Below, one piece after another: positions 1 to 60,254 of a stretch of DNA of 64,000 bases. How positions within the stretch are numbered: the first letter of the stretch is position 1; the number at the start of each line of letters is the position of its first letter. The position numbers and the translations under genes were made by a program. The notes under the pieces are model-generated. The model was not told the DNA's origin. It saw only the letters and a program-made list of their open reading frames with translations, and ran no database searches. Origin of the DNA: Ceratodon purpureus (taxonomy: Eukaryota; Streptophyta; Bryopsida; Pseudoditrichales; Ditrichaceae); contig CM026431.1 in assembly GCA_014871385.1 (NCBI GenBank), forward strand, positions 9,526,739 through 9,590,738. Direction: 5' to 3'.

Positions 1-1177
1 TCTTGTGTTATGAAATGCATTACATCATATCTAAGAAGGAAACCATGCCAAGCCTGAGTCGATGATCACTTGCACATTGGGAGATCCTCCACATGTAAAA
101 TTGATGAATTTTTACAGACAACAGAATTAGTACATTGACATGCTTCAAATAGAACTTATGCTTACATAATTTTCCAACATAAAAGTATAGATTGTTATCA
201 GAAATTGTTTCTAAAATGTTGAACAACAGAAAATCGTGTTAAATTACTCTCTAGCCAACAATACATTTATCATAGATTCACTTTTCTACACGATAATGCT
301 CGTTTAAATAATCAACAAACTTGTCTCTCCGAGCGTTTGTTTCCGATTGACAACAACAATCCGCAACATACAGGTCCTACTTGAAGATGCAACCATGCGC
401 ATTCTCTACTATATACTTCTACTTTAAGGTTTTGAATTTTGTGTTCCTACCAGTGAATGAAGTTCAACAACTTCCCAAGAAAATGAAAGAAAAAAGATTT
501 AGGAGAAAAAGAATTTTACAAATTTAGTGTATATGTATTCAAAGTAAGTGATTTAAAACAAGTCTTTAGGTTGTTTAACATCTACAGAAATGACTTTAGT
601 TTTGTATGTATTCATATGGATTATGGTATGGTGTAGGTTAATATGAGTTATAATGTATTAAAGTGTGAGTTCTTGAAGACCATAAAGTTTTACAGAGTGG
701 ATTTAGTAATACTTTATTGAAATCGAAAGTAGTAAAGGTGAAATGCAACTTAATGTATACTTGTTTCATATAACATATTGTAGATCATAATTATTTATAG
801 ATTTTTATATTAATTAGAATTATATTATGTGATGACCAAATTAATTATGTATTTTCTACTTTTTAGAAAATATTTTAATTTAAATATCATCAATTCAATA
901 GATCTGGTAAATTCAAATTTAATATGAAATTTCTTTTTGACATTCTTTATAAACAACTTTCGATTCTATTTTTTTTTTACGTTATACCTAATGCTTAAAT
1001 ATAAATATATATAATACAATTCATTCAATTGAAAATAATTATTTACTTATTTTTATTATATTAAAATTTTTAGTTCATTTTTTTAATTTAAAATTATTAC
1101 TTGAAAGAATTAAATTAAACATATATTTTTATATAAATTTGGTTCAAATATAAAAAATCTTGTATTCTTTTAAATAA

Positions 1178-1252
<75 letters not shown>

Positions 1253-1544
1253 TTAAATTTAGAATGCTAAAATTTTTAATTCAAGTTTGAATTTCAACTA
1301 TAATTTAAGATTATTTGTCATTAAAAATCTATAATTTGATAAGAATTCCTTTTAAATGAGGTTTTGGTTTTTAAAATCATTCAAGGTTTGTTTTTTTTTA
1401 AATGAAAATAAATATTTTAATTTAATAAAAAGAAATTAAATTTATAATATCAAATAATTTTTTCTTCAAGCAATACCTTTGAAGAATCAAAGATCAAAAA
1501 TAGGTTGATAAGAAAATTATCATAAATTGAAATTGCAAAGGAAG
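1..1544 (+). repeat. Left arm of long imperfect palindrome
   Basis: Position 1 pairs with 4436 and the pairing runs inward: base i on the left is the complement of base 4437-i on the right until the AT microsatellite. The outer 200 bases are identical between arms. The arm is extremely AT-rich and holds an (AT)n tract near 1181-1250. Close to its inner end it carries about 80 extra bases (roughly 1312-1385) that the right arm lacks. The match ends at the AAGGAAG at 1538-1544. Because it begins at the first base of the window, the arm may continue outside it. The short identical frames in both arms (20-226 minus, 4211-4417 plus) follow from the symmetry and are not evidence of a gene. Confidence 0.95.
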
Positions 1545-1545
1545 A

Positions 1546-1979
1546 TCATTTAGGTTCAGATGTATCTGGCTTCTTTGCATGATATGCAACTACCAAAGAG
1601 ATGCAACCATTTTTGCATGCGGCAAGCACCCTCTTTCGGAAGTCGACATGTTGCTTGGTCTTGTACATGCGTTTTGGATCTGTAGTAGCCTCTGCTTCAA
1701 CCCAATTAAACTTTTCTTGCAGCTTCAGTTGACAGAAGACGGGAATCTTCAAATTCCCAAGTCTCACAACAAAAAGCACATCAGCTCCGGATGAGTCCTC
1801 AAAAATAAGGCTTTCTCAATGTGAATGTAGGTGCTTTCTGTTGCTGACATCATCTTTAAGAATGTGCCTGCATACCAGCGCTCCTCCAATCGAGACTTAG
1901 TGAATCCGACTGGGACCCTCCTGGCGTTCGAGATCATCTCCCGCCATTGTGCGGACACAGACACAATCACTTCTCCGTC
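1546..1979 (-). pseudogene. Broken fragment resembling a CRN/RHS-type PD-(D/E)XK nuclease domain
   Basis: Two adjacent minus-strand reading stretches (about 1979-1764 and 1805-1546) read as one polypeptide interrupted by a single-base frameshift near 1795-1812. An in-frame stop at 1980-1982 closes the upstream side and no ATG-initiated full gene is visible. The downstream stretch has a G-A-D triad (1788-1780) followed about 20 residues later by a P-V-F-x-Q-x-K motif (QLK at 1731-1723), and ends in a hydrophobic strand before the stop at 1546. A GxD...QxK pattern in this order is typical of the restriction-endonuclease-like core in Crinkler and RHS proteins. The family call is inference from that motif only; the base composition is clearly richer in GC than the surrounding arms. 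Confidence 0.4.
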
Positions 1980-2019
1980 CTATCCAGACTCGAAAATCCC
2001 AGCTTCCTTCCTGTTTGGT

Positions 2020-2330
2020 GAAAAAAAATTCACAAAATGTATTGCAGAAGTGACCCTCTAAAAAAACATCCTTGCGGTACTTTTGGAACCCTAAACCAAT
2101 TAATAAGTATATGAATTGACTATTTTAGAATACCTCTTTAACATATAGAGGGCACCACTTCCTCAAAAGTGATTTTAAGATAATTTTCATTATTTTCTAG
2201 CCACTTTTCCAAATGACGGTGTTCACTTTGCTTGGATTTAAAGTATCTATTTTGTAGGAAAATTTACCAAGTTGTACAAAAACAAGTTGAGAATCTATAT
2301 TAACAAAAACATTTGACTTCATAGATTGGT
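2020..2330 (+). repeat. Dispersed repeat, copy A
   Basis: About 300 bases align in direct orientation with 5337-5655. Shared landmarks are GCAGAAGTGACC, CATCCTTGCGGTACTTTT, TATAGAGGGCACCACT, TCAAAAGTGATTTT and GAGAATCTATATTA. Identity by eye is high but imperfect with several small indels. It lies in the palindrome spacer just upstream (on the minus strand) of the nuclease-like fragment, so it may be flanking or promoter-side DNA of the same element. Confidence 0.85.
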
Positions 2331-2630
2331 TTATTGTTGATTAAGTCTAAAAAAAAATGTCATATATTAGTTAAGAACATGTTTGGTTCCAAATTGATAT
2401 TAATTTAATTGTTTTCACAAAAATAACAAATTTATAATTTCAAAAGATTAAGAAGTTATACAATGAGGATAAAGATGGTATATTTTGACATCTTTTGATC
2501 TTTAATATGTGGAAACATTTTAATTTATTAATATATATTCCATATATTTTTATTTTTTTGAGAAGATCAATATGGCCTATCATTAAGCCATATATTATCA
2601 TGCTTCAATTATATGACTCTACCAATTCTT

Positions 2631-2748
2631 TTACTGGACCACATGCAACCTTAGGTAATTGTCATTATGACCATTTCAAATCATGTGCCATAGAAATATA
2701 AATATATATATGTTTAACAATTACCTAAGGTTGCATGTGGTCCAGTAA
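2631..2748. repeat. Perfect 31-bp inverted repeat with 56-bp loop
   Basis: Bases 2631-2661 are the exact reverse complement of 2718-2748; the core is CTGGACCACATGCAACC in the left copy. The hairpin sits inside the palindrome spacer. It looks like a small foldback or MITE-like insertion, or the ends of a separate element. I cannot identify a family or confirm target-site duplications. Confidence 0.9.
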
Positions 2749-2996
2749 GCATTAAACAAAAATTCACCTTCACATTTGGAACAACTTCAACTAAATTCAT
2801 TTAATCCATTGGATTGTGCTTTGACTTTATTTTAAAACTTTCAATTGATATCATCAACCTTTTTTAATTCAAAACATTTTTTCCCACATTTTAAATAAAT
2901 TTTTTTTGTATATCAATTATAATGGAAATACATTATCTAATTCAAATAAAATTACTACGCAGGTATATACATTAACAATGCAGTCCTTAAGTTGTA

Positions 2997-3216
2997 CTTC
3001 CTTTGCAATTTCAATTTATGATAATTTTCTTATCAACCTATTTTTGATCTTTGATTCTTCAAAGGTATCGCTTGAAGAAAAAATTATTTGATATTATAAA
3101 TTTAATTTCTTTTTATTAAATTAAAATATTTATTTTCATTTAAAAAAAACAAACCTTGAATGAAATTATCGTTGAAATTCAAACTTCAATTAAAAATTTT
3201 AGCATTCTAAATTTAA

Positions 3217-3259
<43 letters not shown>

Positions 3260-4436
3260 TTATTTAAAAGACTACAAGATTTTTTATATTTGAACCAAAT
3301 TTATATAAAAATATATGTTTAATTTAATTCTTTCAAGTAATAATTTTAAATTAAAAAAATGAACTAAAAATTTTAATATAATAAAAATAAGTAAATAATT
3401 ATTTTCAATTGAATGAATTGTATTATATATATTTATATTTAAGCATTAGGTATAACGTAAAAAAAAAATAGAATCGAAAGTTGTTTATAAAGAATGTCAA
3501 AAAGAAATTTCATATTAAATTTGAATTTACCAGATCTATTGAATTGATGATATTTAAATTAAAATATTTTCTAAAAAGTAGAAAATACATAATTAATTTG
3601 GTCATCACATAATATAATTCTAATTAATATAAAAATCTATAAATAATTATGATCTACAATATGTTATATGAAACAAGTATACATTAAGTTGCATTTCACC
3701 TTTACTACTTTCGATTTCAATAAAGTATTACTAAATCCACTCTGTAAAACTTTATGGTCTTCAAGAACTCACACTTTAATACATTATAACTCATATTAAC
3801 CTACACCATACCATAATCCATATGAATACATACAAAACTAAAGTCATTTCTGTAGATGTTAAACAACCTAAAGACTTGTTTTAAATCACTTACTTTGAAT
3901 ACATATACACTAAATTTGTAAAATTCTTTTTCTCCTAAATCTTTTTTCTTTCATTTTCTTGGGAAGTTGTTGAACTTCATTCACTGGTAGGAACACAAAA
4001 TTCAAAACCTTAAAGTAGAAGTATATAGTAGAGAATGCGCATGGTTGCATCTTCAAGTAGGACCTGTATGTTGCGGATTGTTGTTGTCAATCGGAAACAA
4101 ACGCTCGGAGAGACAAGTTTGTTGATTATTTAAACGAGCATTATCGTGTAGAAAAGTGAATCTATGATAAATGTATTGTTGGCTAGAGAGTAATTTAACA
4201 CGATTTTCTGTTGTTCAACATTTTAGAAACAATTTCTGATAACAATCTATACTTTTATGTTGGAAAATTATGTAAGCATAAGTTCTATTTGAAGCATGTC
4301 AATGTACTAATTCTGTTGTCTGTAAAAATTCATCAATTTTACATGTGGAGGATCTCCCAATGTGCAAGTGATCATCGACTCAGGCTTGGCATGGTTTCCT
4401 TCTTAGATATGATGTAATGCATTTCATAACACAAGA
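2997..4436 (-). repeat. Right arm of long imperfect palindrome
   Basis: Reverse complement of 1-1544, starting at the CTTCCTTTGC at 2997. Its (AT)n tract (about 3220-3256) is about half as long as in the left arm, and it lacks about 80 bases present in the left arm near 1312-1385. Scattered single-base differences occur (for example within the TCTTTTAAAT stretch), but most stretches are identical, so the arms separated recently or are homogenised. After 4436 the sequence continues GAGAGGTC, with no partner inside the window. Confidence 0.95.
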
Positions 4437-5336
4437 GAGAGGTCACATTAATTTTAATTATAAACAAATGTCACACACTAATCAATAAAATAAATTTTGC
4501 ATATTATTTCTTTGGATAAACTAGTAAACAACTCATAATGTATTCTATTTTTAAAAAACACTTGATGATTGTTATTAAATATATTATAATTATTTTTTGA
4601 TATTAAATATTTTCTTGCATATTCATGATAATAATTATCTAATTTTAGATGTTTTAAGTACTCACAAAAAATCAAAGGTTAGTTTATGCATCAAGATCTA
4701 AACTTTTTATATTAAATTCATAAAATATTATATGATTTGAAAAATGGAATGTGTGCTAAAAATTACTTATCGTTTATTAAATTTAGAAATAATCTTAAGA
4801 TTCTAGACTAAAATTATTAAATTGAAATTGTCATATTTTTATTTAAGTGCAAAACAAACTATCTTTAATATTATAATTTTAAATAAATTGAATAGATTTT
4901 CATATATGAATAAAAGACATGTAAAATAAGAATAAAATTATCTCATATACTCTATATTTTAATTTTTCTTATGTTTTTTTCAAATATAAATGGATGGAAT
5001 CATATTTAATTAAATTTTTTCAAATTCAACATTCAAATAATCTAGAATTCAAAGATTATAAAAATCTAAAAGATATAATAGTATACAAACATGTATAAAC
5101 AAATGTAAGGTAAAATATAAATTTACATCAAATGTAAATATTTAATAATTTACAACACTATTTAATATGAATTGAATTTTTTTTATAATTTTAAATATAA
5201 TGCATACAATATTCCTGCCTCTAGCGGATGGCTCATTTTTGATACTTCATTTATGTTCCTCATAGGCTTGAATATGTTTGAAACATTACAATATTATATT
5301 TTAGAGATGCTTTTAAATATTCATTGACAATTCCAG
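4437..5336. other. AT-rich intergenic DNA, no gene seen
   Basis: Very AT-rich DNA with only short, stop-riddled frames on both strands. I see no repeat partner, RNA gene or splice-linked coding exon here. Confidence 0.7.
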
Positions 5337-5907
5337 TGGAAAAAAACTCACAAAAAATATCGCAGAAGTGACCATCTAAAAGAACATCCTTGCGGTACTT
5401 TTAAAACCCTTAACCAATTATTGAGTATATGAAATGACTACTTCAGAATAACTCTAAAACGTATAGAGGGCACCACTCCTTCAAAAGTGATTTTCAGATA
5501 TTTTTTTGTTCTTTTTAGGCCACTTTATCAAATGATTGCATTCACTTATCTTAGATTTGAAGCCTTTATACAATAACTTTAAAGTGTATGCTTTGCACGA
5601 AATTTTTCTTAGTTGTAGAAAAACAAGTCGAGAATCTATATTAGCAAAAAGAATTGACTTCAATAACATCTTTCCATCACTTTTGTGCAATTTTTGCAAA
5701 AGGGATGAAACTGACAAATAGCTAAGCACTTTTTTAGTCAACTTTATTGTGCTCCTCCTAGTGGTTGAAGATAATTATGTAGTAAAAAATGGCTTTGAAG
5801 TTGAAAATGATCTTATAGTTGAAGATGATTTGGAAGATGATTTAGTGATTGAAGTTGATATGGAGATTGATGAAAACAAGGCGGAGGAGTTCTTCAATGA
5901 AGAGTGA
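5337..5907 (+). repeat. Dispersed repeat, copy B, followed by a short acidic reading frame
   Basis: Bases 5337-5655 match the palindrome-spacer copy at 2020-2330 in the same orientation. Downstream, 5722-5907 is an open frame of about 61 codons without an ATG start. It becomes strongly acidic, with repeating V-E-x-D units rich in Asp and Glu, and ends E-E-stop at 5907. The acidic tail looks like the C-terminus of a decayed gene of the element that carried the repeat, but no domain is recognisable and no upstream exon can be joined with confidence. Confidence 0.6.
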
Positions 5908-6379
5908 TGAAGGCCCACATCACTATTTGGCCTAAATTTGCACATATTAGAGGATGTTCATGTTTAGAAGGGATAGATGTTGTAATATGTGCTAATTATA
6001 AGGAGCTGAGTCATATGAATTAGTTGCAACCTTTTTATTGTCCCATAGGTTGCATTGGTCAAGGTTGATTGAATGTTGGACATGGAATCTCAAATGCCAC
6101 TTGAATAATTTCTTGTTTGAGTTACTACTTCACAGCTAAAGAATCACACCTAATTTCATGGAATATATATATATCCAATTCTTTTTGCTTGAGTTTGTTG
6201 AACAAGTTATATTTCATTTTTATGTGAAAAGAATTTCAATAAAGCCCAAGACTAGAATGGGTTTTTGAGCCTCGCATTCATAAGCATGAGAATTTGCAAA
6301 CTTTTGGTCCATTATACCATGATTTTTTAAGTAAAATAATTAATTTAAAAAGGATGTACTACAGTAAGCGAAGCAGCCA
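5908..6379. other. Intergenic DNA, no gene seen
   Basis: AT-rich sequence between the dispersed repeat and the tRNA gene. I see no coding exon or repeat. The sequence directly before the tRNA (CAGCCA) gives no clear upstream promoter; plant tRNA transcription would rely on the internal A and B boxes. Confidence 0.6.
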
Positions 6380-6451
6380 ATCAGAGTGGCGCACCGGAAG
6401 CGTGGTGGGCCCATAACCCACAGGTCCGAGGATCGAAACCTCGCTCTGATA
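6380..6451 (+). tRNA. Initiator tRNA-Met (CAT)
   Basis: A 72-base cloverleaf. The acceptor stem ATCAGAG (6380-6386) pairs with CTCTGAT (6444-6450), with discriminator A at 6451. The anticodon stem GTGGG/CCCAC encloses the loop CCCATAA with anticodon CAT at 6412-6414. The T loop is ATCGAAA instead of the usual TTC-containing loop, and the anticodon stem has three G-C pairs; both mark the eukaryotic initiator form. There is no intron, whereas plant elongator tRNA-Met genes have one. The T stem is CGAGG/CCTCG, a compensated variant of the usual plant CCAGG/CCTGG. The first strong T-run is TTTTTT at 6484-6489, about 33 bases downstream. Confidence 0.97.
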
Positions 6452-9400
6452 AAACAGAGACAAGAGCCTCCGGAGAGACATTCTTTTTTCCTCATCGCCA
6501 GTATTACTGGCATTTGCGGTTGCAGCACTCTTTTCGACAAAGGGAGAGTCGATTCACGCTGAGACAACATCCATCGCATTCTGCTGCTTCATTCCCTGCT
6601 CATCGGAAGGGAGCCGTCACGCCGTGGAGCTGCAGCTTGCACATCTGCCGAATCTCAGATAATTCGATCATGGAACAGCGGAGTGGGGGCTAGCTTCGGA
6701 GCTGCCGGAGAATAATTATTCAAGTTCTCAACACGATGTCAATACGAACTCTTCGTGAGTTGAATTAATCTGGTTTGGTCATACATATATATATTGATGG
6801 AATTCCAGTAAATTATATTATATATCTAACTTATATATCTTTTGGTTAATTCCAGTGATGCTCTCGAGAGCAGCCATCGTTGGAGGTAGCCCGGGGAACA
6901 GCTTCTGCTAGTGGTCATCAGTTTTAGAAGTATTAATTGCTTGGTTTGGGTATGGAGAAGTAGTTCCATCTTACTGTACCCTGTATTATATCTCTCGTTC
7001 TTATTACATTTTCCTTCAGCTTGACGATGCAAGGACCTTAGATTGCAACCCTGTGAGATTCTGTGAAAAACTGAAATAGGATGATATTAGTTGTACACAA
7101 GATCATCAACCGAGTAAGAGCATGATCGAGAGCAGAAGTAGATACGGTATTGAGCCTGGAGGTTTTGATCGGATCCTTGAAAGTGCTCTGGAGCGAACGG
7201 GTACTGGATTTGACATCTGTGACAGAGCAGCGTTGGGAAGAGATGAACCGGCTATACTAATTTGAAGAGCTGAAATTTATGCAAACATCAGACTACGACA
7301 GTGAAATATTCTAATGCGTGCAAGACTTGTGTTGGTATTTTTCGATGAAACGGGGGATTGGTAGTCGGTGAAGGAGATGGAGGAGGTGCATAGGCGGAGA
7401 TTATGAAGCTGGTGAGCAGTTCGTTGTTATGAGGGTGTTCCCTCATGCTTTTGGCTTGCGACATCGGTCTTAGGATCAAGCAGTGGCCTTTAATAATGTA
7501 GATTTAGAAGTTGTACCTGGTACGCGGTGTAATTGTGGTGAAGATGTCTGAACATATTTGCAGTTAATATGCTGACTCGGCAGTCAGGCAGATCTGCACA
7601 TGATAAACGATCTTCGGATTATTGAACGTAGAAAGAAAGGCCCTCCCTTCACTGGGAACCTAGTCAAGTGATTGATGTATAGTATCACAATCTAGACATG
7701 ACTCTTTTACATGCACTTTAATCTGGACTTATCCTGCACATGGACCTTAAAGCGGCATATGCACATTTAATAATGTCATACACAGGCCTCCGCTTCAATC
7801 AGCATTCTTGTCTCTCAGTGAGCGGGAATTTTTGGATTCTTGCCCTTTGAATCTCGTTATAGCAATGGTGTTACCACCATGTGGAAGTACGGAATCTGGA
7901 GAAAATTTGGACCATACGAGTTGGACCGAGTTTACTTGAATCACGAGAATCTGTAATGTGTGAAAGTAAAAATCATCTCAGAGTCGATTCTAAAATTGCT
8001 TGATAGAACTGAAAAGAGTTTCAGAGCTGATTTTGAGGATGGAGCACATACGAGTAGACATTGCATTCATGATGATTCATTTTGAAGATGGAGCCTATAT
8101 CATCTTTCGGGATTGCGGGCATGAGCACTGCCGGGTGTTGGAAAATCGCAGGCCCTTGGCCATAGTCAAGAAAGAAATTCAGGAAGAAAAGAATGAAGTC
8201 ATTTTTGAGCAGCAAGCATACCGTGCTTCTAACAGGTGTACGTTTTGAGCCCACTTGCGTCCTCGGATTGTTTCCGTGCGTCTACCTCAAAGCGCCGATT
8301 ATAACATTTTCTGCTAGAAAGTGGAATTGATTATTGTACTCACATTTCTCACCGACTCCTCTTTCTCAGGAGCTTCATTCAGTATAACATAACAGAATAT
8401 ACCACATTTAATCTGATACGGCGACAATAATAGTGTCAGAAATTCAGCAAGATAATATGGCGGGGACTGAGGCCTTCAAGTTAGCTGGACATATTTTGGC
8501 ACATGATTCTATTCAAAATTGGGCGTACTATTTCAGATGAAGCGAATATGGTACGAAATGCAAAAAAATACAATTTCGTGAAACAAACAAGTGCTTCTGG
8601 GGGAGCTTTCACCTGCAGATGTACCACGGTAGACATTTTCCTTTTGTACGTGGATTCTAAACGTGGTTGTAAAGATGGAATACATCATTTAATAAGTTAA
8701 ATTATTTCAGAAAGATGCTAGTGAGGTACATTTGTTGTGTGGGCCAGAGTTGTCTCTACAGTGTTTTATTGGAGCATTCGAATCATTCAATGTTCGTGAC
8801 TGTATTTGACAGCATCATTCCTAAAGTTGCCCACAAGTTAGAGCGTCCTCTTTATCAGTATGCTAAAATTGTCGTGCAACTGTAATTGAGTCATAAAACA
8901 AGACTAGGAAAGAAGGAAGAGAAGAAGGTGGGAGGAGTCTATGTCGGCGTTGATGCAAAGTCAAGGACTCAAGTCTCAAGCTGTGGTGCTATTCATCAGT
9001 TGCACCTGCTCTTTCTCTGCAGTTATAGCCTGCCTCCGTTACACTCGTCGGCCTTGATGATGCATTCCTTGCAGCTGCTACATGGTCATCTTTTTGCACT
9101 AATACGGTTCCGGGCAAATCTGAGATCATTCCGAGTGTATTCGGCTCGCGTGGGGTGCAGTGCTCCCCGATATGTTGAGTCTTCAGGTGCTTGCTTCACA
9201 CCTCAGGCTCGGTTTCCTCTTTGGGTAGTACTGGTGCTGCTTTTCTGTGTCGGAGTTGAAGGTGTCGCCGTTTCTTTGGAGTATTTACATGGACCAGGCG
9301 AGATATCGATCTGAGGTGCAGGGTGTATGAAGGTGATGAACATGCGAGCCTCTCTTATGGTGGCACTGTTATGACGCGTTTAATTCGCGATTGGTTTTTG

Positions 9401-11169: not shown

Positions 11170-12306
11170 TCTTGCGGGATCTGAGTTCAAGGGTTAGGTC
11201 AATTTACAGGTTCATGATTCATTTTCATTTGGGCAGCTTAGCAATCGTGCCTGGCAGGTGTGGTGTGACCACAGATTCTCTAGATGGAGAAAAACTTGGC
11301 AGAAGAACCGATTTCCAACTGCTCCCATCGGAGCGGTAGTACTTCCGAAGCTTCTGTATATTTTAGTTTAGGGCTAGGATTACGGCGTCTTACATTGAAT
11401 GGATGTGAAGTGTCCCTTCGGGATTCCATCTCTTCGACATTGGCTTTCAGTTTTATAGTGTAATTATCCACTCAGTTGAAAACTCTACTTGAGAATTACT
11501 CGACTCAGTCTCTGCCCTTTCTATGGCTGCATTATGCCTGCTTCGAGAAATTGGAGTGCAACCAGTGGAATTGTGTTTTGCAGATCGGTTGTGTTTCCAA
11601 GGGACATCTGTGAAGAGAACACTGGACACTACGCCATTTCCATGTGAAGCCTTCAACCAGAAACGCTGAATGAGAAGTTATGCATTTATTCTTGTTTAGA
11701 TTGAAAATTGAATTCTTTGTACTAGAGTTACAACTTGGTTTAAGGACAACCCTTCTGAAATGACCACAGTAATCAACCTAAAACATCGCTTGCAAGTTTT
11801 CTTAGTCTTCGTTGAATCCTAGAATGCATCCCTATGCGGCCATGCCTTGCCATTGCAGACAATAGTATCAGATGGAAATAAGGCTCGACTCGGTTGATGG
11901 CCATGAAGGTCAACAAAGCCTAGATCTAATTCTACTGAAAATAATGCACTCATCCTGTAAATACGCAGAAGAAGTAGTGTACTGTACCAATCTACAGTTA
12001 CATTGACTTTGCTGGACACTACTGTCGGTAACTTAACCTCATGTCAACCCGGAGATCTGGAATAAAGCTTCCAACAAGGGATTTCATCTGAAATTAGAAA
12101 ATCCTCCAAAAATTTCTTGACGCTATGAATCCACTTCGTCGGCGACCCAGCTGAGCAGAGAGGAAACGACGATGTTTACATAATCTGAAGAACATTGAGA
12201 GTGGTACCAATCATCCGAAACGCTAGACAGATCATGGAGTGGCGCATAACCGAAGGATGAATCTGCATACACTTGATGTTCAAGCTTGATAGAAATTGCT
12301 ACAGCG
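11170..12306. other. Intergenic; relic 3' flank of the tandem membrane-gene unit
   Basis: No gene is visible. Bases 11646-11676 (GAAGCCTTC...CGCTGAATGAGAAGTTAT) closely match the DNA directly after the second membrane-protein gene (14706-14744). This suggests that an older copy of that tandem unit once lay here and has decayed. No homologous coding sequence could be recognised upstream of it. Confidence 0.5.
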
Positions 12307-12969
12307 ATGGAGTGTACCCGTGAGAAGTATGCAATTGTAAATGAGAGCTACGAGATCCATGTGTGCTTCACCGATCCTGACTCCAAAATCACAACCTACG
12401 GACGTGTTCGGTTCGCCCTGCAAACCAGCTCCTGGTTTCCAACTCTCTTCGGCGTTCTTTTGTGGAGTGTGCTTCATGTACTGCTCCTCGTTGGCGTTGC
12501 CCCTCTCCTGGTTCTGCTGACGCCTATAGCGCTTGTATTCCTTGTAGTACTAGAGATCTACCTCGTCGTTGTGATTATCCTCGTCGGTCTGCCATTGTCT
12601 TTATTCCTCTGTTTCGTCGTATATATATGCATGATAATTAATTTGGGTTGGTCATTGGCGAGGTTTTTTTGGTCGTTGATCTTTGAAAGCAGGCGGTTGA
12701 ATAGAATAAGAGGTGCAAGCACGAGGTTTGTTTCGTGGTGGGCTCATGCTTCCTGGTCCTCGTTTTTTCCTCTTGGGCCTTGGAAGGAAATAAGAGATTC
12801 AGTGTTGTATTCGCCTGAGGAAGGTTTTTGGCATGGTATTCGGCGATTAACGATGTTTACTCCAGATCGCATTAAGTACGTGATGCATGATGGATTCCTT
12901 GCGTACTTAAAAATGGTGAGAAGGTGGTGTGAAGAGGTTGCGCACATCCACGTCGCCATTGCCGTTTGA
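12307..12969 (+). CDS. Unknown small membrane protein, tandem family copy 1
   Basis: A single-exon frame of 220 residues from the first ATG (12307), the same M-E-C start as the two relatives downstream. Residues 1-45 are soluble and include a conserved I-H-V-x-F then I-T-T-Y segment. Residues 47-126 are almost continuously hydrophobic, enough for three membrane spans beginning in LWSVLHVLLLV. After these come the conserved L-N-R-I-R-G, WW-x-H-A-S-W and, near the end, R-W-C-E-E-V-x-H-x-H. It is paralogous to 14102-14707 and to the broken copy at 15331-15903. I do not recognise the family; the conserved Trp, Cys and His residues after the membrane region are its most distinctive feature. Confidence 0.65.
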   Translation: MECTREKYAIVNESYEIHVCFTDPDSKITTYGRVRFALQTSSWFPTLFGVLLWSVLHVLLLVGVAPLLVLLTPIALVFLVVLEIYLVVVIILVGLPLSLFLCFVVYICMIINLGWSLARFFWSLIFESRRLNRIRGASTRFVSWWAHASWSSFFPLGPWKEIRDSVLYSPEEGFWHGIRRLTMFTPDRIKYVMHDGFLAYLKMVRRWCEEVAHIHVAIAV

Positions 12970-14101
12970 AGCCTTCTTGCATTGGTGTTGAATTTACCAG
13001 CAATTCTTCTCAGACTGAGTATAAAAATTGCATCATAGTTTTTGGACAGGAACCAAACGTTGTTTCTAGATGAATTGAATCAGCATTCTAGCAGAAGACG
13101 AGATGTGTTGGGGGAAAGAGAGGCTATTGTAGAGCTATCAAGCCTGTAAAATTATGTACAAATACGTGGTCAGATTATATTTTCTCTAGCTTTGCAACCA
13201 ATACACAGTGCAGCTAATTCCAAGGTTACTTGGACTCTTGTTTTTCTGCTTAGCAAAGATTATTAAATTTATCTATGTTCAACATCGTTTTATTTCTTTG
13301 AACACATTGAGTCTAATGTGCTGTTCTTTGGAAAGAAATTCTTCATCAGTACCAAAATGAGTAAAATAATCATAAGAAAATACTGTCTGATGAAGTGGAG
13401 CACGGAACACAACAGCATACACCGCAACTAAACGCTAGCTGAACACACTTCCTACAAAGAATAACCGCCGCAATAACGCTTCACTTCTTTTCTGTAGGAA
13501 GTGTTGCAAGACCCTTGTGTTAACCAGTGCACATTCTAATCGATTCCTTTTTGATTTGAAGTGGTATGATAGATTTTTAGAACAAAGAATTACTCACTGA
13601 TATGAACAAACCAGTGAACCTAAACATATGCATTCGAATCACTTAGTCGGCGGATCTGAACGCAATCATCATGTCCGCAGCAGACAGTATTCTCGAAGCC
13701 TGAGTATTACATAACATTTTCGAAAATGATACATCGAATTCTGTCGAAACATTGCGGCAGAAGTGAAAACTTTGGAACTGGAATCCAAATCTATTTGTGC
13801 CCAGACACTGAATCCAACACTCATTCTTATCAATGTTCGGGATACGAAACGTACGTTTCGAAAACGTTTCATAGCAATGTTGGATCTGAAGCAGACTGAT
13901 TGAGGCAACAAACTGTAGTACCTTCACGATCAAACCGGGACCAACAGACACTTGATTCACGCAGGTCTTCAGGCCATATTCCCGGAGTCTCTCCTCTTCT
14001 CCCCGACTTGATAGACTCCACATGCGAGCCGCAAAGGAGATTAACCCAGCGCATTTACTTGACGAATCTAGTGTCGAGCGGGTTCGACAGAGTTTGATAG
14101 A
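12970..14101. other. Spacer between tandem copies 1 and 2
   Basis: No supported gene. It contains a 12-bp perfect inverted repeat (ACACTTCCTACA at 13445-13456 with its complement at 13492-13503). The last 230 bases are the presumed promoter and leader of copy 2. The frame at 13643-14023 on the minus strand has no recognisable domain and I treat it as noncoding. Confidence 0.55.
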
Positions 14102-14707
14102 ATGGGTACGATGGAGTGCACCCGCAAGGAGTTAGCGAACAAGACCTGCGAGATTCATGTGGGCTTTACTGGCACCGAGATCATCACAACCTACACACGG
14201 CTCCGCTTCGCCCTTCATGCAAGCTCCTGGTTTCCAAGGCCTCTGGGGATTGTTTTGTGGAGTGTGCTCCATGTGCTACTCCTAGTAACTCTTCCTCCTT
14301 TCCTCGTTCTGCTGATGCTTGCGATGCTCGTATTGTCGGTCTTGGGGGATACCTTATTTCTCGTTGGCTGCTGGCTGCCAGCGGTTGTCGCCTTCGTTTT
14401 TTTTATCTACCTTTTCAAACTTGTAGGTTTGTTGATTGTGTTTAGTTTGTTGTTGATAACTGAAGGCGAGCGGTTGAATCGGATCAGGGGTGTGATTAGA
14501 AGCTTTGTAGAGTGGTGGACTCATGCTTCCTGGCACTCATTTGTCCCAGGGGATTTTTGGGATTTCGTTGAGATGTTGAAGTACCCACCACCGGTGATGT
14601 CTCCAAGGTGTGTTGTGTATCTTGTGCGGGTGGGGTTACCTTGGTATCGTAGAGCGTTGAGGTGGTGTGAAGAGGTTGTGCACATGCACGACGCCGTTGT
14701 CATTTGA
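14102..14707 (+). CDS. Unknown small membrane protein, tandem family copy 2
   Basis: A single-exon frame of 201 residues. The ATG at 14102 lies three codons before the ATG at 14111 that aligns with the M-E-C start of copies 1 and 3; either could be used. It shares with copy 1 the I-H-V-x-F segment, LWSVLHVLLLV at the start of the hydrophobic region, LNRIRG, WW-x-HASW and the terminal RWCEEV-x-H-x-H, and it is about 20 residues shorter in the region before the C-terminal motif. Three membrane spans are likely between residues 50 and 120. The paralogues are clearly diverged across the membrane segments, so the duplication is not recent. Function unknown; no domain recognised. Confidence 0.65.
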   Translation: MGTMECTRKELANKTCEIHVGFTGTEIITTYTRLRFALHASSWFPRPLGIVLWSVLHVLLLVTLPPFLVLLMLAMLVLSVLGDTLFLVGCWLPAVVAFVFFIYLFKLVGLLIVFSLLLITEGERLNRIRGVIRSFVEWWTHASWHSFVPGDFWDFVEMLKYPPPVMSPRCVVYLVRVGLPWYRRALRWCEEVVHMHDAVVI

Positions 14708-15330
14708 AGCCTTCCAGTGCCAGAAATGCTGAATGAGAAGTTATAAGATAATTTTCACTCAGACATAAACTTGAATCCAGTGCATGAGAGTGGCAATCTG
14801 TGTCATTGCGCTTATTCGTTTCGGTTCAAAGATTCTGATTCTAGACGGAGTGTATGACCAACACACTTGCGTGAGGTTGTTTGGCTTCGCTCCAATATGT
14901 ATGCCAATCAATGACTTCAGTGAACTTTACAAAGGTGGAAGAGACCCATACAAACCATTCCAACGAGACCCATACAAGTGGGAAACAGAGGTCTTAATCT
15001 CTCATTCACAGACCATCTTCCTACTTTGGAACAGGGTGATGGAGCTTTTCTCTGGTTGTTAGGGAGGTGATGCAACCTATTGGTTCTTTTTCTTCATTAG
15101 CCAGTGAAAGGATTAGTTCTTTGACACCCACCAGTGTGAGATGCACTTACGGACTGGACATGACGACGTGTTTACGATCTGAAGAAGACGCGCGACACAG
15201 GCAGAGAAAGATTGAGGACATCAAACTCGAGGCTAGGGTTGGGAGATTTATGGAGCGTCTCTTTCATTTGACACAGCGAGGACAAAGCTTGTAGATAGAT
15301 TGTGGATAGCCTGGTGGAAAGAGCTGTTAG
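14708..15330. other. Spacer between tandem copies 2 and 3
   Basis: Starts with the 3' flank shared with 11646-11676. The last 200 bases share a stretch with the leader of copy 1 (TGTTTAC...ATCTGAAGAA at about 15169-15186 and 12172-12192), so the leaders duplicated together with the genes. The 92-codon ATG frame at 14784-15062 has no recognisable motif. Confidence 0.5.
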
Positions 15331-15903
15331 ATGGAGTGCAAGCGAGAAGAGTTACCAGTGAATCAGACCTACTTGATTCATGTGTGCTAAGTTAGTAATC
15401 CTGATGCCCATATCACAACCTCCAGAGGACTTCGCTCTCCCTTCAAACAAGTAAATGGATTCCGAGGCCCATAGGGAATTGTGGTCTGGAGTGTGCTCCA
15501 TGTCCTGCTCCTTGTGAGCATACCTCCGCTCCTAGCCCTTTGTGCAGCTACAATGCTAGTACTGGTCGTGGTTTTAGATATCTTGATTCGTGTTATTCTT
15601 GGTTCTGTGTGGATGCTGATTTTTTTTTTGAGATTGTTTGTTCTTGAATTACCTACCCATGTTAATGTGTTTTGGTTAATCACTGGCGTGAATACTTTGT
15701 AGCTCATGTTTAAAAGCGGGTGGTTGCATTGGATTAGAGTTGCGAGCAGTAGTTTTCATCATCCATCATGGGAGTTGTTTTCCCCTTGGACGTCTTGGGA
15801 GGATTATAAGACAAGTTGGTGTTCAGCCGTTGAGCGACTGTCGGTGGCGATATATCGAGGGTGGATTATGACTTTCATGCGGGTATTTCTCAGCAGCTGT
15901 TGA
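15331..15903 (+). pseudogene. Tandem membrane-protein family copy 3, with three in-frame stops
   Basis: Aligns with copies 1 and 2 from the M-E-C start (15331) through the conserved VWSVLHVLLLV segment to a stop at 15901-15903, 190 codons later. Stops interrupt the frame at 15388-15390 (TAA), 15472-15474 (TAG) and 15700-15702 (TAG). No net frameshift is needed across the 570 bases, so inactivation came from point mutations and is fairly recent or under mild constraint. The C-terminal R-W-C-E-E-V motif of the intact copies is missing and a stop comes earlier. Confidence 0.75.
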
Positions 15904-56832: not shown

Positions 56833-59800
56833 ATGGCGGCGAAGATAATCTTTGTGAACCAGGATGACAAGGCGCAGTCGTTCAAGGCGAACCTGTTTGG
56901 GCCGGAGAAGAACCGCGTGAGAGTGGCCAACGTGCTGGCGGCGTTCAAGTCCTCGGTGGCTATCATGGAGGACGGGAGTACCATGGAGGCCGACGACGAC
57001 GGCTTGAGCATGAATACCTTCGTCGCGGGCGGCACCTACAATCTCTCTCTCGTGCCGCAAGGTATTCTTAAGGGTTTTCAACTATGTCGACTATGTTATG
57101 TTTTCGTTAAATTTATTCCTTCGAACCTGGTGGTCAGAGTCAGTTTACATGTGCTGAGGCGGTGCAGTATTTGTGCAAGTGTTAAATTTTCTAGTAGAAT
57201 GAAATCAACCAAACTTTTCAAAAACTTTGCAGTCCACCTTCGATGACATCAACCATGTCCTCTCCTGCCGATGGTTTCTAGGCTGAAGCATAGTACTGTG
57301 AGGCTTAAATAAGGGTTTTTGAAGCTAGTGTGTTGTGGACTGCATACACTGTGAAATCTGGATAGAGAACTGGAAAGAGTGTGAAAGCTATGTAGAAGGT
57401 ATGTTGAGTGTTCCCTTATTCTTTAGGTTTTTGATCCTTGTGCTGGTCTGAGTTTCTGGATTGCTTGGTGCCTGTTTTTTCCTGCTGCAGTTATTGATGT
57501 GTTTTCTTTGTTGAAAAGTGGTCAAGAAGTAGGGTATCATCGTGCCGCATCGTGATTCAATGGAAGCATGCTAAGGATATCCTTCCTTCTACTGGTTGGA
57601 TTTTGATTAATTGCCTTATAACTTTTTGCAATTAGAATTGGTAATCCTACTGGTTTCCTTACGAGAATCGGTATAGGGTGCAGGGCTTCTTGGCTTCATG
57701 AATAAGCATGGTTGAAGATAATTTAGGCTTTCTTGGGGGATGTAATTTTCGTGGGCAGCTTCGAAAGAAGACTGTTAGTTCTCATCCGGTTGCTTAGAAT
57801 TCTACTGCGTCTCAGGTGTTCTTGTCTACTTTAGAATTTCAAGGTTATTGAAAGCTTTGCAAACTTTGTTATGGAAGGCAGACGCAAGGCATTTGTAGCA
57901 AGGTTTGTGAGGGTATGTCTTCATCTTTGGGGCTGTAATTATGGGTATTTGTGACTTCCGTGTGTGATCGTTACAATTGGGGCGTTTGCTATAGGAGCGG
58001 GCCTTGTTCTTGTGACTTTGTTGCATCCGTAACTTGATGCGGGGATTTGTTCAGTTCTTGATACTTAGGGTTTATTTCTGGACTTCGCGTGCTTTTCTTT
58101 TGCTTTTCAAGGGGACTTGAGCCGAGTCGGCATTTCCTTGAGCTTGCTGCATTGCACTGTTTCAATAGGGTATCATGGACAGTGTGAGTAGGGTTTCCAT
58201 AGACTTTCAGGCTTGCAACCTGGAGGCTTTTTCTAGTGATGTATGGGCAGCTGATTGGTTAGGTCGCACATCTCCTAGGGTCATTTAATCTCTGTGGTTC
58301 TCTGTTCTTGCACTGAGCGTCTTTCACCAAGGTTTTACGAGCTGGTGCTAGATAAATCAGATGAGTATCGATTTGTGACTGAAGTGTTTCCTATCGTTTG
58401 CGTTTGACGCGACCTGCTGATTTAACGTACTTGTGGTGTATCCACTCGGCCGATCCACTTTGTTTGGGACGCATATATGCTATCCTTGCATACTCTTGTA
58501 GAGCCATAGCGGGCTGAGAGCAGTGTCCAGGTCTAGGGTTTGTCTGGTTTGCAGCAAAGTGTTAGCAGGTGTTAGCTCCCTGTTTTGGCTATGGTGCATG
58601 TGTCATATAGATATGGTCATGGTGTTTGATAGATATTATAGACTTGGCAACGGTGTGTGGACTCTGACTGTGCGGTGTGAGTGCAGAGGAAGGTCCACCT
58701 TCGAAGAGGAGACGAGTTGAAACTCCAGAACATTGGCAGGCCTTTGTCCAATCAGCAGCAAAAAATTACAAAGAATGGGAAGCGGCCATGAAGAATGGGA
58801 AGAATGGGAAGACTGATGCTGAAAAGGATAGTGATGCTGAAAAGGATAGTGCCATGAAGTTCTTGACTGTGAGTGGTGATCCGTCCCTCAATTTTATGAA
58901 AGGATATCTTCTTGGTATTCGGGAATGCTACATAGGTTTGAAGAAGATCTTGGAGAAACCGAAGCGGCCGGGCGATTGTTTCCTTGTATTGGGTACATCG
59001 GGCATCGGGAAATCTTGTTTTTCTGTTTTTTGGATCTGTCATCTGGCGGCAAGAAAGAAGAAAGTTGTTTGGAAATTGCACTCGAATTTCTATCTCCTGG
59101 ACTTCAGTGACGAAGCTGTGAAGTTCGATGCTCAGCTAGAAGAATCGGACCCTAAAATTCAGGAAGTGTTTCGGGATCGTGATGCTTGGCTTATTATTGA
59201 TGGGGGGCAGGAAGGTAGTATTGATTGTGCATGCCATATTCTGGTACCATGTTCAGATCAAAAAAAGAACTATGCGAAGTTTCTCAAGATTCAGCGTTTC
59301 TCAGTACTGTATCTTCCTGTTTGGGAAGAGGAGGAGATCAGCCAGTTTGTGGACGCCTTTGAACAGCATAGGCTCGAGTATCAACATATGGATGTACCTT
59401 CCAAAGAAGAGGCAATTGAAAAGTATGCGCTGCTAGGAGGTGTGGCAAGGTATGTCCTATGTTCTAAGAAAACTGCATATCGCTTGGAGGAACAAGAACA
59501 AGCACTCCGTCAACTTGATGCTGCCAACTGTTTGAAAATGTTAAAGGATGATTTTACTGCTCTCGAGTCGACAAGAGATATGCTTGTCCACATGACCCTT
59601 GGACCAATTACTGATGACTCGAAGAAGTATCGTCAACGAGATTTTAAACTTGCATCAGGTCGAGTGAAGTCGCAGGTCATAGCTGCTCTTGATATGGAAT
59701 ACAAGGCTGATACGGTCAAGATACTCAAGGCGCTTCTGAGTTGCACTGGCGCAGGGAGTTATTTTGGGTACATATATGAGCTTGTGGGACATTACATTTT

Positions 59801-60254
59801 CATCGGAGGTGGGGAATTTCGCAGGAAAAGGGTTCACGATGGCCGTGATGCTGAGGAGTTGAACAGTTTGAAGTTACCCAAATTGACGTGCCATAGGTTT
59901 GAATCGTTGGATACCCTTCCGAAATTGGAGGCTGATACCTATTACTATCCGAAGGCAGGGAATTTTGCAAGTATCGATGCCATCATGCATCCCAACCGTT
60001 TGCTTCAGTTCTTCAATTACAGCCGTGGTGACCATGGGTATTTGGTGACGGGTCTGGAGAAAGTTCATGCTCGGTTAGGGTGTGACGAGTACGAAGTTTG
60101 GTTTTGTGTACCCAAAGAGAAGTACGAGGTGACGGGCTTCCAATCATGGTTAACTTCGAAAGGGGTGAAATATAAAACAAACTTACTACCTACGTTCCTT
60201 GAAAAGTCAGATCAGTACGTGATTGAGGTCGATTTCGAGAAGCTCGGAACTTAG
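56833..60254 (+). CDS. Crinkler (CRN)-type protein: ubiquitin-like header, P-loop NTPase, REase-like C-terminus
   Basis: Exons 56833-57061 and 58687-60254; the 1,625-base intron is GT-AG and joins in frame, giving 598 residues. Residues 1-76 form a compact beta-rich header starting A-K-I-I-F-V-N with a conserved V-A-N-V-L-A-A-F, like the ubiquitin-like header of CRN proteins. A basic P-P-S-K-R-R-R follows (possible nuclear localisation signal). The P-loop G-T-S-G-I-G-K-S is at 179-186 and a Walker-B-like W-L-I-I-D-G-G at 244-250. Residues 495-535 hold a F-x-S-I-D-A-I (Asp507) followed by L-L-Q-F (Gln517), which match the D...Q part of the restriction-endonuclease-like CRN C-terminus; the expected K after Q is not seen. 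CRN proteins are known as pathogen effectors but also occur in free-living eukaryotes, including mosses, where their role is unknown. Codon use looks like that of the neighbours. Confidence 0.8.
58815..58850 (+). repeat. 18-bp tandem repeat in the CRN linker
   Basis: Two perfect copies of an 18-base unit (GATGCTGAAAAGGATAGT) encode D-A-E-K-D-S twice, just after repeated N-G-K units. They lengthen the charged linker between the header and the NTPase domain and are a likely site of length variation. Confidence 0.9.

What the first reader, a model, noticed from the sequence alone, without database searches (positions are those of the whole stretch)
1546..1979. Decayed CRN/RHS-like nuclease domain trapped between the arms of a giant palindrome
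The minus-strand fragment shows a GAD triad and a QxK motif in the order of the restriction-endonuclease-like core of Crinkler and RHS proteins, broken by one frameshift and an in-frame stop. It abuts the inner boundary of the left palindrome arm. Comparative work has linked CRN/RHS nucleases to transposable elements; a copy inside an inverted-repeat structure in a plant would be direct physical support and possibly a new element type.
Basis: partly seen in the sequence, partly recalled or inferred. Interest (0 to 1): 0.75.

Follow-up and report, generated by a model that had tools for sequence, protein, structure and literature searches.

The report
Nuclease gene scrap in moss palindrome
A broken-off piece of a plant gene for a predicted DNA-cutting enzyme sits inside a long mirror-image stretch of chromosome; the mirror does not look like a jumping gene but like one of several near-identical inverted duplications in this genome, some of which carry transfer-RNA genes.

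Summary
Partly right. Window 1546-1815 (-) is an 89-codon open piece of a paralogous gene family; an open 718-aa relative lies on contig C9 (51 of 79 residues identical). Its order, P-loop ATPase then G[A/P]D...QLK, resembles Crinkler/RHS-type (CR) proteins, but no library profile confirms that name.

The palindrome exceeds the window: arms -3642..1544 and 2997..8089, 4,596 bp identical, edges diverged. Element features tested were not met: whole arms were found only here, no target-site duplication.

Each arm carries a tRNA-Met gene. Five other tRNA-Met pairs are inverted and identical over all 474-510 bp fetched. Without this locus, 29 of 91 tRNA matches lie in equal-score inverted pairs within 20 kb, against 2 of 76 copies of two repeats and 6 of 45 U2 matches. 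The inverted-over-direct bias holds for equal-score pairs (15:5), not for neighbours of any score (15:9, p 0.31). The nuclease scrap is probably a passenger; the recurrent near-identical inverted pairs, probably kept alike by gene conversion, are the interesting part.

The parts
1546..1815 (-). 89-codon open piece of a paralogous ATPase/nuclease-like gene (C-terminal part, G-A-D...Q-L-K), truncated at both ends
1..1544 (+). inner part of the left palindrome arm; the arm begins about 3.6 kb upstream of the window (position -3642)
1545..2996 (.). spacer of the palindrome
2997..8089 (-). right palindrome arm; 3273-7868 identical base for base to -3431..1164
6380..6451 (+). tRNA-Met (CAT) in the right arm; mirror copy at -2014..-1943, both pointing outward
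5336..5758 (.). another truncated copy of the same repeat, inside the arm
2631..2748 (.). hairpin in the spacer: 32-bp perfect arms, 54-nt loop; only the self-match was reported in the genome search (40 of 1499 candidates scored)
58668..60251 (+). 528-aa open frame of a second P-loop family (CR-like by recalled motifs), with a 97% identical 256-bp piece 89 kb away on the same contig

Best explanation
The fragment is a small relic of a plant gene family encoding a P-loop ATPase joined to a restriction-endonuclease-like domain (CR-type by architecture). It lies in the spacer of a chromosomal inverted duplication as a passenger. The palindrome does not look like a mobile element: a local segment carrying a tRNA-Met gene was duplicated in inverted orientation, perhaps by template switching at a stalled replication fork, and arm-to-arm gene conversion has since kept the 4.6-kb middle identical while the edges diverged. 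It belongs to a recurrent class of near-identical inverted pairs in this genome, among which tRNA-bearing ones are frequent. Shown: homology of the fragment, arm anatomy, the tRNA genes, five further tRNA-Met pairs with identical flanks. Inferred: gene conversion, the template-switch origin, passenger status, enzymatic nature of the family.
For: Homology; open 718-aa relative with GSGKTR and VVLDEAQ (motif reading recalled); AAA_22 and AAA_16 matches below cut-off. Arms; outer edge 21 substitutions in 211 aligned bases, inner edge 4 in 276, against 0 in 4,596. No second copy of whole arms. Five tRNA-Met inverted pairs identical over all 474-510 bp fetched, the one direct pair 431 of 483; flanks differ between most pairs (C4:1342 and C4:19820 share 90% over 390 bp). 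One pair resolved: 653-bp arms, one mismatch, abrupt ends, spacer 2.75 kb. Without this locus 29 of 91 tRNA matches in equal-score inverted pairs within 20 kb, against 2 of 76 repeat copies, Fisher p 5e-7. Two non-tRNA inverted pairs seen in sequence: C7 at least 2,800 bp at 99.93%, C8 at least 2,821 bp at 99.79%.
Against: The fragment's homology ends 8-29 bases from the arm's inner edge, which chance position does not predict; the breakpoint may have cut the gene. U2 matches also form three inverted equal-score pairs (6 of 45; all among the weaker matches, none among the 24 of 90 bits or more), and tRNA against U2 is only p 0.02. Orientation: equal-score pairs 15 inverted to 5 direct (p 0.04), but neighbours of any score 15 to 9 (p 0.31). 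Equal score is a laxer test for tRNA, whose scores repeat, than for diverged repeats. Pairs include trios and are not independent. dN/dS of the fragment is 0.43 and 0.70 against two relatives on 79 codons, so neutral decay is not shown.
Confidence: 0.7

Rival explanations
1. The palindrome is a transposable element with very long terminal inverted repeats that carries a CR-type nuclease gene.
For: A nuclease-like fragment lies between the arms; CR proteins have been linked to mobile elements (PMC5289972, section 11 read).
Against: No second copy of whole arms reported; no target-site duplication: the longest shared direct word near the outer edges is 7 bases, reached by 161 of 500 shuffles; arms hold a tRNA gene and a common repeat; paralog loci L069-L072 have no such arms.
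Confidence: 0.04
2. The palindrome is an assembly artefact, or its arm identity was created by consensus polishing.
For: 4,596 bp without one difference is suspicious; parts of small contigs C98 and C25 repeat C7 and C9 at 99.97-100%, so the assembly holds some redundancy.
Against: Arm edges differ (21 in 211, 4 in 276, plus indels), which a simple read chimera would not give; no N in the stretches checked; 653-bp arms inside contiguous sequence; more pairs at tRNA genes than at two repeats.
Confidence: 0.13
3. The fragment and palindrome share a cause: the break that truncated the gene was the one at which the inverted copy was joined, so the family's loci are rearrangement-prone.
For: Fragment homology stops 8-29 bases from the inner edge of the arm. 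A C7 palindrome has second-family pieces in arms and spacer. A 256-bp piece of the second family lies between pieces of a common repeat, with a 71-bp duplicated scrap.
Against: By the equal-score measure only 2 of 31 rows of the two families are in inverted pairs, no more than repeats or U2. Four paralog loci with 8-9 kb of sequence have no inverted arms of note.
Confidence: 0.2

Closest known systems
CR (Crinkler-RHS-type) proteins with NTPase plus REase domains
   Same: P-loop-like motifs followed by a domain with G-[PA]-D and Q-x-K in the 718-aa relative; CR proteins are reported from land plants (PMC5289972, section 11 read).
   Different: No curated profile match over cut-off; header domain not tested; the window piece is only 89 codons.
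Long palindromes with gene-converted arms, as on primate sex chromosomes (recalled)
   Same: Near-perfect arms, identity highest in the middle of the arm.
   Different: The pairs found here lie on contigs other than the very large C6; one resolved pair is short (653 bp) and tRNA-bearing.
Local tRNA gene pairs in eukaryote genomes (PMC2888827, passages only)
   Same: tRNA genes duplicated locally beyond chance.
   Different: There most adjacent pairs are parallel, in Arabidopsis and Selaginella nearly all, in clusters set by a distance of about 1000 nt as I read the passage; here the five sequenced inverted pairs are 3.3-5.2 kb apart and identical beyond the gene.
Fission-yeast centromere cores flanked by inverted repeats (PMC10085805, passages only; the role of tRNA genes there is recalled)
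   Same: AT-rich inner part, inverted arms, a tRNA gene where composition changes.
   Different: No evidence of a centromere; one locus compared.

Membership tests
CR (Crinkler-RHS-type) NTPase-REase proteins | P-loop NTPase domain | tested here: inconclusive
   718-aa relative: AAA_22 E 0.0015 and AAA_16 E 0.002, both below Pfam's cut-offs; Walker-type motifs by eye (recalled). Absent from the window piece.
CR (Crinkler-RHS-type) NTPase-REase proteins | REase-superfamily nuclease core | tested here: inconclusive
   D and Q-x-K kept in all five members of A1 and in the window piece; no Pfam or NCBIfam match over cut-off, PADLOC E 0.018, best PDB sequence match E 0.75 to an unrelated chain; single-sequence fold of the 89 aa had pLDDT 57.5.
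CR (Crinkler-RHS-type) NTPase-REase proteins | Crinkler N-terminal header (Pfam PF20147, accession recalled) | not tested
   Genome search not answered. The Pfam scan of the 718-aa frame did not list it, but a header could lie in an exon outside that frame.
Trypanosome RHS proteins (Pfam PF07999) | Match over the curated cut-off | tested here: not met
   Best match in the genome 16.8 bits against a cut-off of 25.
DNA transposon with terminal inverted repeats | Arms present at several sites | tested here: not met
   Other matches are a common repeat, the tRNA region (28) and three short pieces; one search scored 40 of 1836 candidates.
DNA transposon with terminal inverted repeats | Target-site duplication | tested here: not met
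   Longest shared direct word 7 bases, 161 of 500 shuffles as long; a decayed duplication cannot be excluded.
Gene-converted palindrome | Arms far more alike in the middle than at the edges | tested here: met
   0 differences in 4,596 bp; 21 in 211 at the outer and 4 in 276 at the inner edge. Reads were not available to exclude polishing.

The most novel reading that the evidence does not exclude
In this plant genome tRNA genes act as seeds of palindromes: stalled forks at tRNA genes repeatedly produce inverted local duplications, and hairpin-driven gene conversion keeps the arms identical, so that a large share of tRNA genes is maintained as mirror pairs and neighbouring genes are cut and trapped in the spacers.
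Probability: 0.18. Interest if true: 0.72.

Novelty: new variant of a known kind. Interest (0 to 1): 0.4.

Why it matters
The trapped nuclease scrap itself looks like ordinary gene decay. If the inverted tRNA pairs hold up, they show a plant nucleus in which many tRNA genes are kept as near-identical mirror copies, unlike the parallel clusters reported for Arabidopsis and Selaginella (PMC2888827, passages), and would link fork stalling at tRNA genes, palindrome formation and gene conversion in a testable way.

Tried and rejected

Prokaryote or viral relatives of the family: pattern scans of viral contigs (31 stretches matched, none confirmed) and genome contigs (137, none confirmed); weak as absence, since two short patterns were used in each.

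Structure: single-sequence AlphaFold of the 89-aa piece (pLDDT 57.5) and of the 528-aa frame (33.6) are not usable; no fold search was run.

The inverted repeat at L017 as a second palindrome of this kind: rejected; it is a full and a partial copy of a ~938-bp abundant repeat in opposite orientation with a 256-bp gene piece between.

Controls. Instead 61 held loci (228,773 bases, overlaps not removed; loci of this locus, the tRNA pairs, L008 and L059-L062 left out) were scanned: one inverted repeat with arms of 200 bp or more at 95% identity, the L017 one; arms reaching beyond a locus cannot be seen that way. Rows dropped before the pair counts: 6 of 44 (this locus), leaving 38, 3 of 41 (the L017 locus), leaving 38, 3 of 33 (short non-tRNA pieces), leaving 30, of which 2 are this locus. 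One search kept this locus for tRNA (31 of 93) but not for the repeat; one search mends that (29 of 91; or 31 of 93 against 4 of 78, p 3e-6).

Literature: searches (9 of 9 papers listed; 15 of 92; 10 of 204; 8 of 12; 6 of 6) listed none whose title or abstract start is about palindromic nuclear tRNA genes in mosses; I saw listings, plus passages of four papers. This is no proof of absence. Zhang et al. 2016, the CR survey, is not held; it is cited through PMC5289972.

Species: C6 is over 103 Mb and the other contigs seen with a length are 16-29 Mb or small; this fits the moss Ceratodon purpureus as recalled, but is not shown.

Full report
Place. The window is contig C11:9526739-9590738 of a 362-Mb, 151-contig genome. 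A plant F-box-type protein match (E 4.5e-05, just below Pfam's cut-off) and the contig sizes, one over 103 Mb, suggest a moss, perhaps Ceratodon purpureus; that name is recalled and not shown.

The fragment. On the minus strand 1546-1815 is open for 89 codons. DNA search of 1546-1979 in the genome gave 7 matches, itself included; protein search of the 89 aa gave 8 at E up to 10, six of them at 2.4e-9 or better, itself included. The best relative is a 718-aa open frame at C9:7887868-7890021, 51 of 79 residues identical. tblastn with six protein stretches places the homology at 1552-1827 at most. Against two relatives, dN/dS over 79 codons is 0.43 and 0.70.

The family. A genome search with the 718-aa frame gave 10 matches at 8 places, this one included; some open, some with stops. 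The frame has P-loop-like motifs followed by G-P-D...Q-L-K. Pfam AAA_22 and AAA_16 match it at E 0.0015 and 0.002, below cut-off; NCBIfam gives nothing and PADLOC only E 0.017-0.018; RHSP has nothing over its cut-off in the genome. The order is that described for CR proteins, with REase as the presumed active part and land plants among the carriers (PMC5289972, section 11 read); catalytic residues of CR-REase5 are mentioned, not listed, in the passages seen of PMC6131194. I call it CR-type by architecture, not by profile.

A second family in the window. The 528-aa open frame at 58668-60251 has 21 matches at 16 places in the genome, itself included (two of the places are on small contigs that repeat C7 and C9), and no significant similarity to the 718-aa frame (best stretch P-loop-like, E 0.22). 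Its CR-like C-terminus is recalled, not tested.

The palindrome. With the upstream 10 kb (L029) the arms run -3642..1544 and 2997..8089, 97.0% over 5,198 columns. From -3431 to 1164 there is not one difference to 3273-7868 (4,596 bp). The outer edge has 21 substitutions and 4 gap runs in 211 aligned bases, the inner edge 4 substitutions and 3 gap runs in 276. By the filters (dust on, 120 bp or more) it is the only inverted repeat in these 74 kb apart from a match between copies of a common repeat. Within the arms, composition changes at the tRNA gene: 24.5-24.9% G+C on the inner side, 42.6-42.7% on the outer.

Not an element, as far as tested. Searches with right-arm pieces 2997-5999 and 6000-8089 found both arms here; elsewhere only a ~424-bp piece of a common repeat (40 of 1836 candidates scored), 28 matches at the tRNA gene, and three short pieces. 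No target-site duplication is apparent. Four paralog loci with 8-9 kb of sequence have no such arms.

tRNA genes in mirror pairs. Ten of the 28 tRNA-Met matches form five inverted pairs 3.3-5.2 kb apart; all five are 100% identical over the whole 474-510 bp fetched, flanks included, and each stretch holds a tRNA-Met. Between pairs the likeness is mostly limited to the gene and its edges, though C4:1342 and C4:19820 share 90% over 390 bp and some others share short extra stretches. The single direct pair has 431 of 483 identical. One pair, on C4, was read through: arms of 653 bp with one mismatch, spacer about 2.75 kb, no match to the CR-type proteins. In a partial census by Rfam tRNA (63 of 18,830 candidates scored) there are 10 equal-score inverted and 4 direct pairs within 20 kb; with tRNA-Met 16 and 5, or 14 and 3 within 10 kb. 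Without this locus it is 15 and 5 (binomial p 0.04), but counting neighbours of any score 15 and 9 (p 0.31), because unlike tRNA genes also lie side by side in parallel. So the orientation bias is modest and rests on equal-score pairs.

Controls. Copies in equal-score inverted pairs, this locus left out: tRNA 29 of 91; two dispersed repeats 2 of 38 and 0 of 38 (Fisher p 5e-7); U2 6 of 45 (p 0.02), all among its weaker matches. Equal score is a laxer test for tRNA than for diverged repeats, and flank identity was not checked for the ten pairs. Inverted pairs are thus a more general feature of this genome, most frequent here at tRNA genes. Two non-tRNA pairs were checked in sequence: C7 at least 2,800 bp at 99.93%, C8 at least 2,821 bp at 99.79%.

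Links between CR-type genes and palindromes. The C7 palindrome has second-family pieces in both arms and one in its spacer. A 256-bp piece, 97.3% identical to the window's 528-aa gene, lies between pieces of a common repeat. Against this, only 2 of 31 rows of the two families lie in equal-score inverted pairs (by reading), and by coordinates no place or 89 falls inside the other five tRNA-Met pairs. I read the fragment as a passenger, with a shared break as the main alternative.

Mechanism. Inverted duplication by template switching near a stalled fork, then conversion between arms, would account for inverted orientation, arm lengths from 653 bp to 5.1 kb, and identity highest in the middle. 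The fork-stalling step is from general knowledge of tRNA genes and was not tested. Assembly artefact is not excluded without reads, but diverged edges and the absence of N in the stretches checked speak against it.

Noticed in passing
window 2631-2748: Hairpin with 32-bp perfect arms and a 54-nt loop in the spacer (DNA fold z -10.4); only the self-match was reported (40 of 1499 candidates scored). Possibly a young small-RNA precursor or miniature element.
   Followed up: partly
window 6380-6451 and -2014..-1943: G+C drops from about 43% to 25% at the two outward-pointing tRNA-Met genes, which bracket a largely AT-rich block of about 8 kb (the nuclease piece inside it is richer).
   Followed up: partly
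L017 (C11:9496201-9496456): 256-bp piece 97.3% identical to the 528-aa gene of the window, set between a 71-bp and a 509-bp piece of an abundant ~938-bp repeat: looks like filler from break repair.
   Followed up: partly
L027/L028 (C7:5072321-5092887): Inverted repeat with arms of at least 2.8 kb at 99.93%, about 15 kb apart, with second-family pieces in arms and spacer.
   Followed up: partly
L006 (C2:7436181-7439228): Two inverted 44-48 bp matches to window 1718-1765 inside a 314-column imperfect palindrome.
   Followed up: no
window 12283-12523, 14091-14318, 15330-15533: Three related segments, about 70% alike, two of them within open frames of over 200 aa that look membrane-like by eye.
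   Followed up: no
contigs C98 and C25: Small contigs that repeat the compared parts of C7 and C9 at 99.97-100%: assembly redundancy.
   Followed up: no
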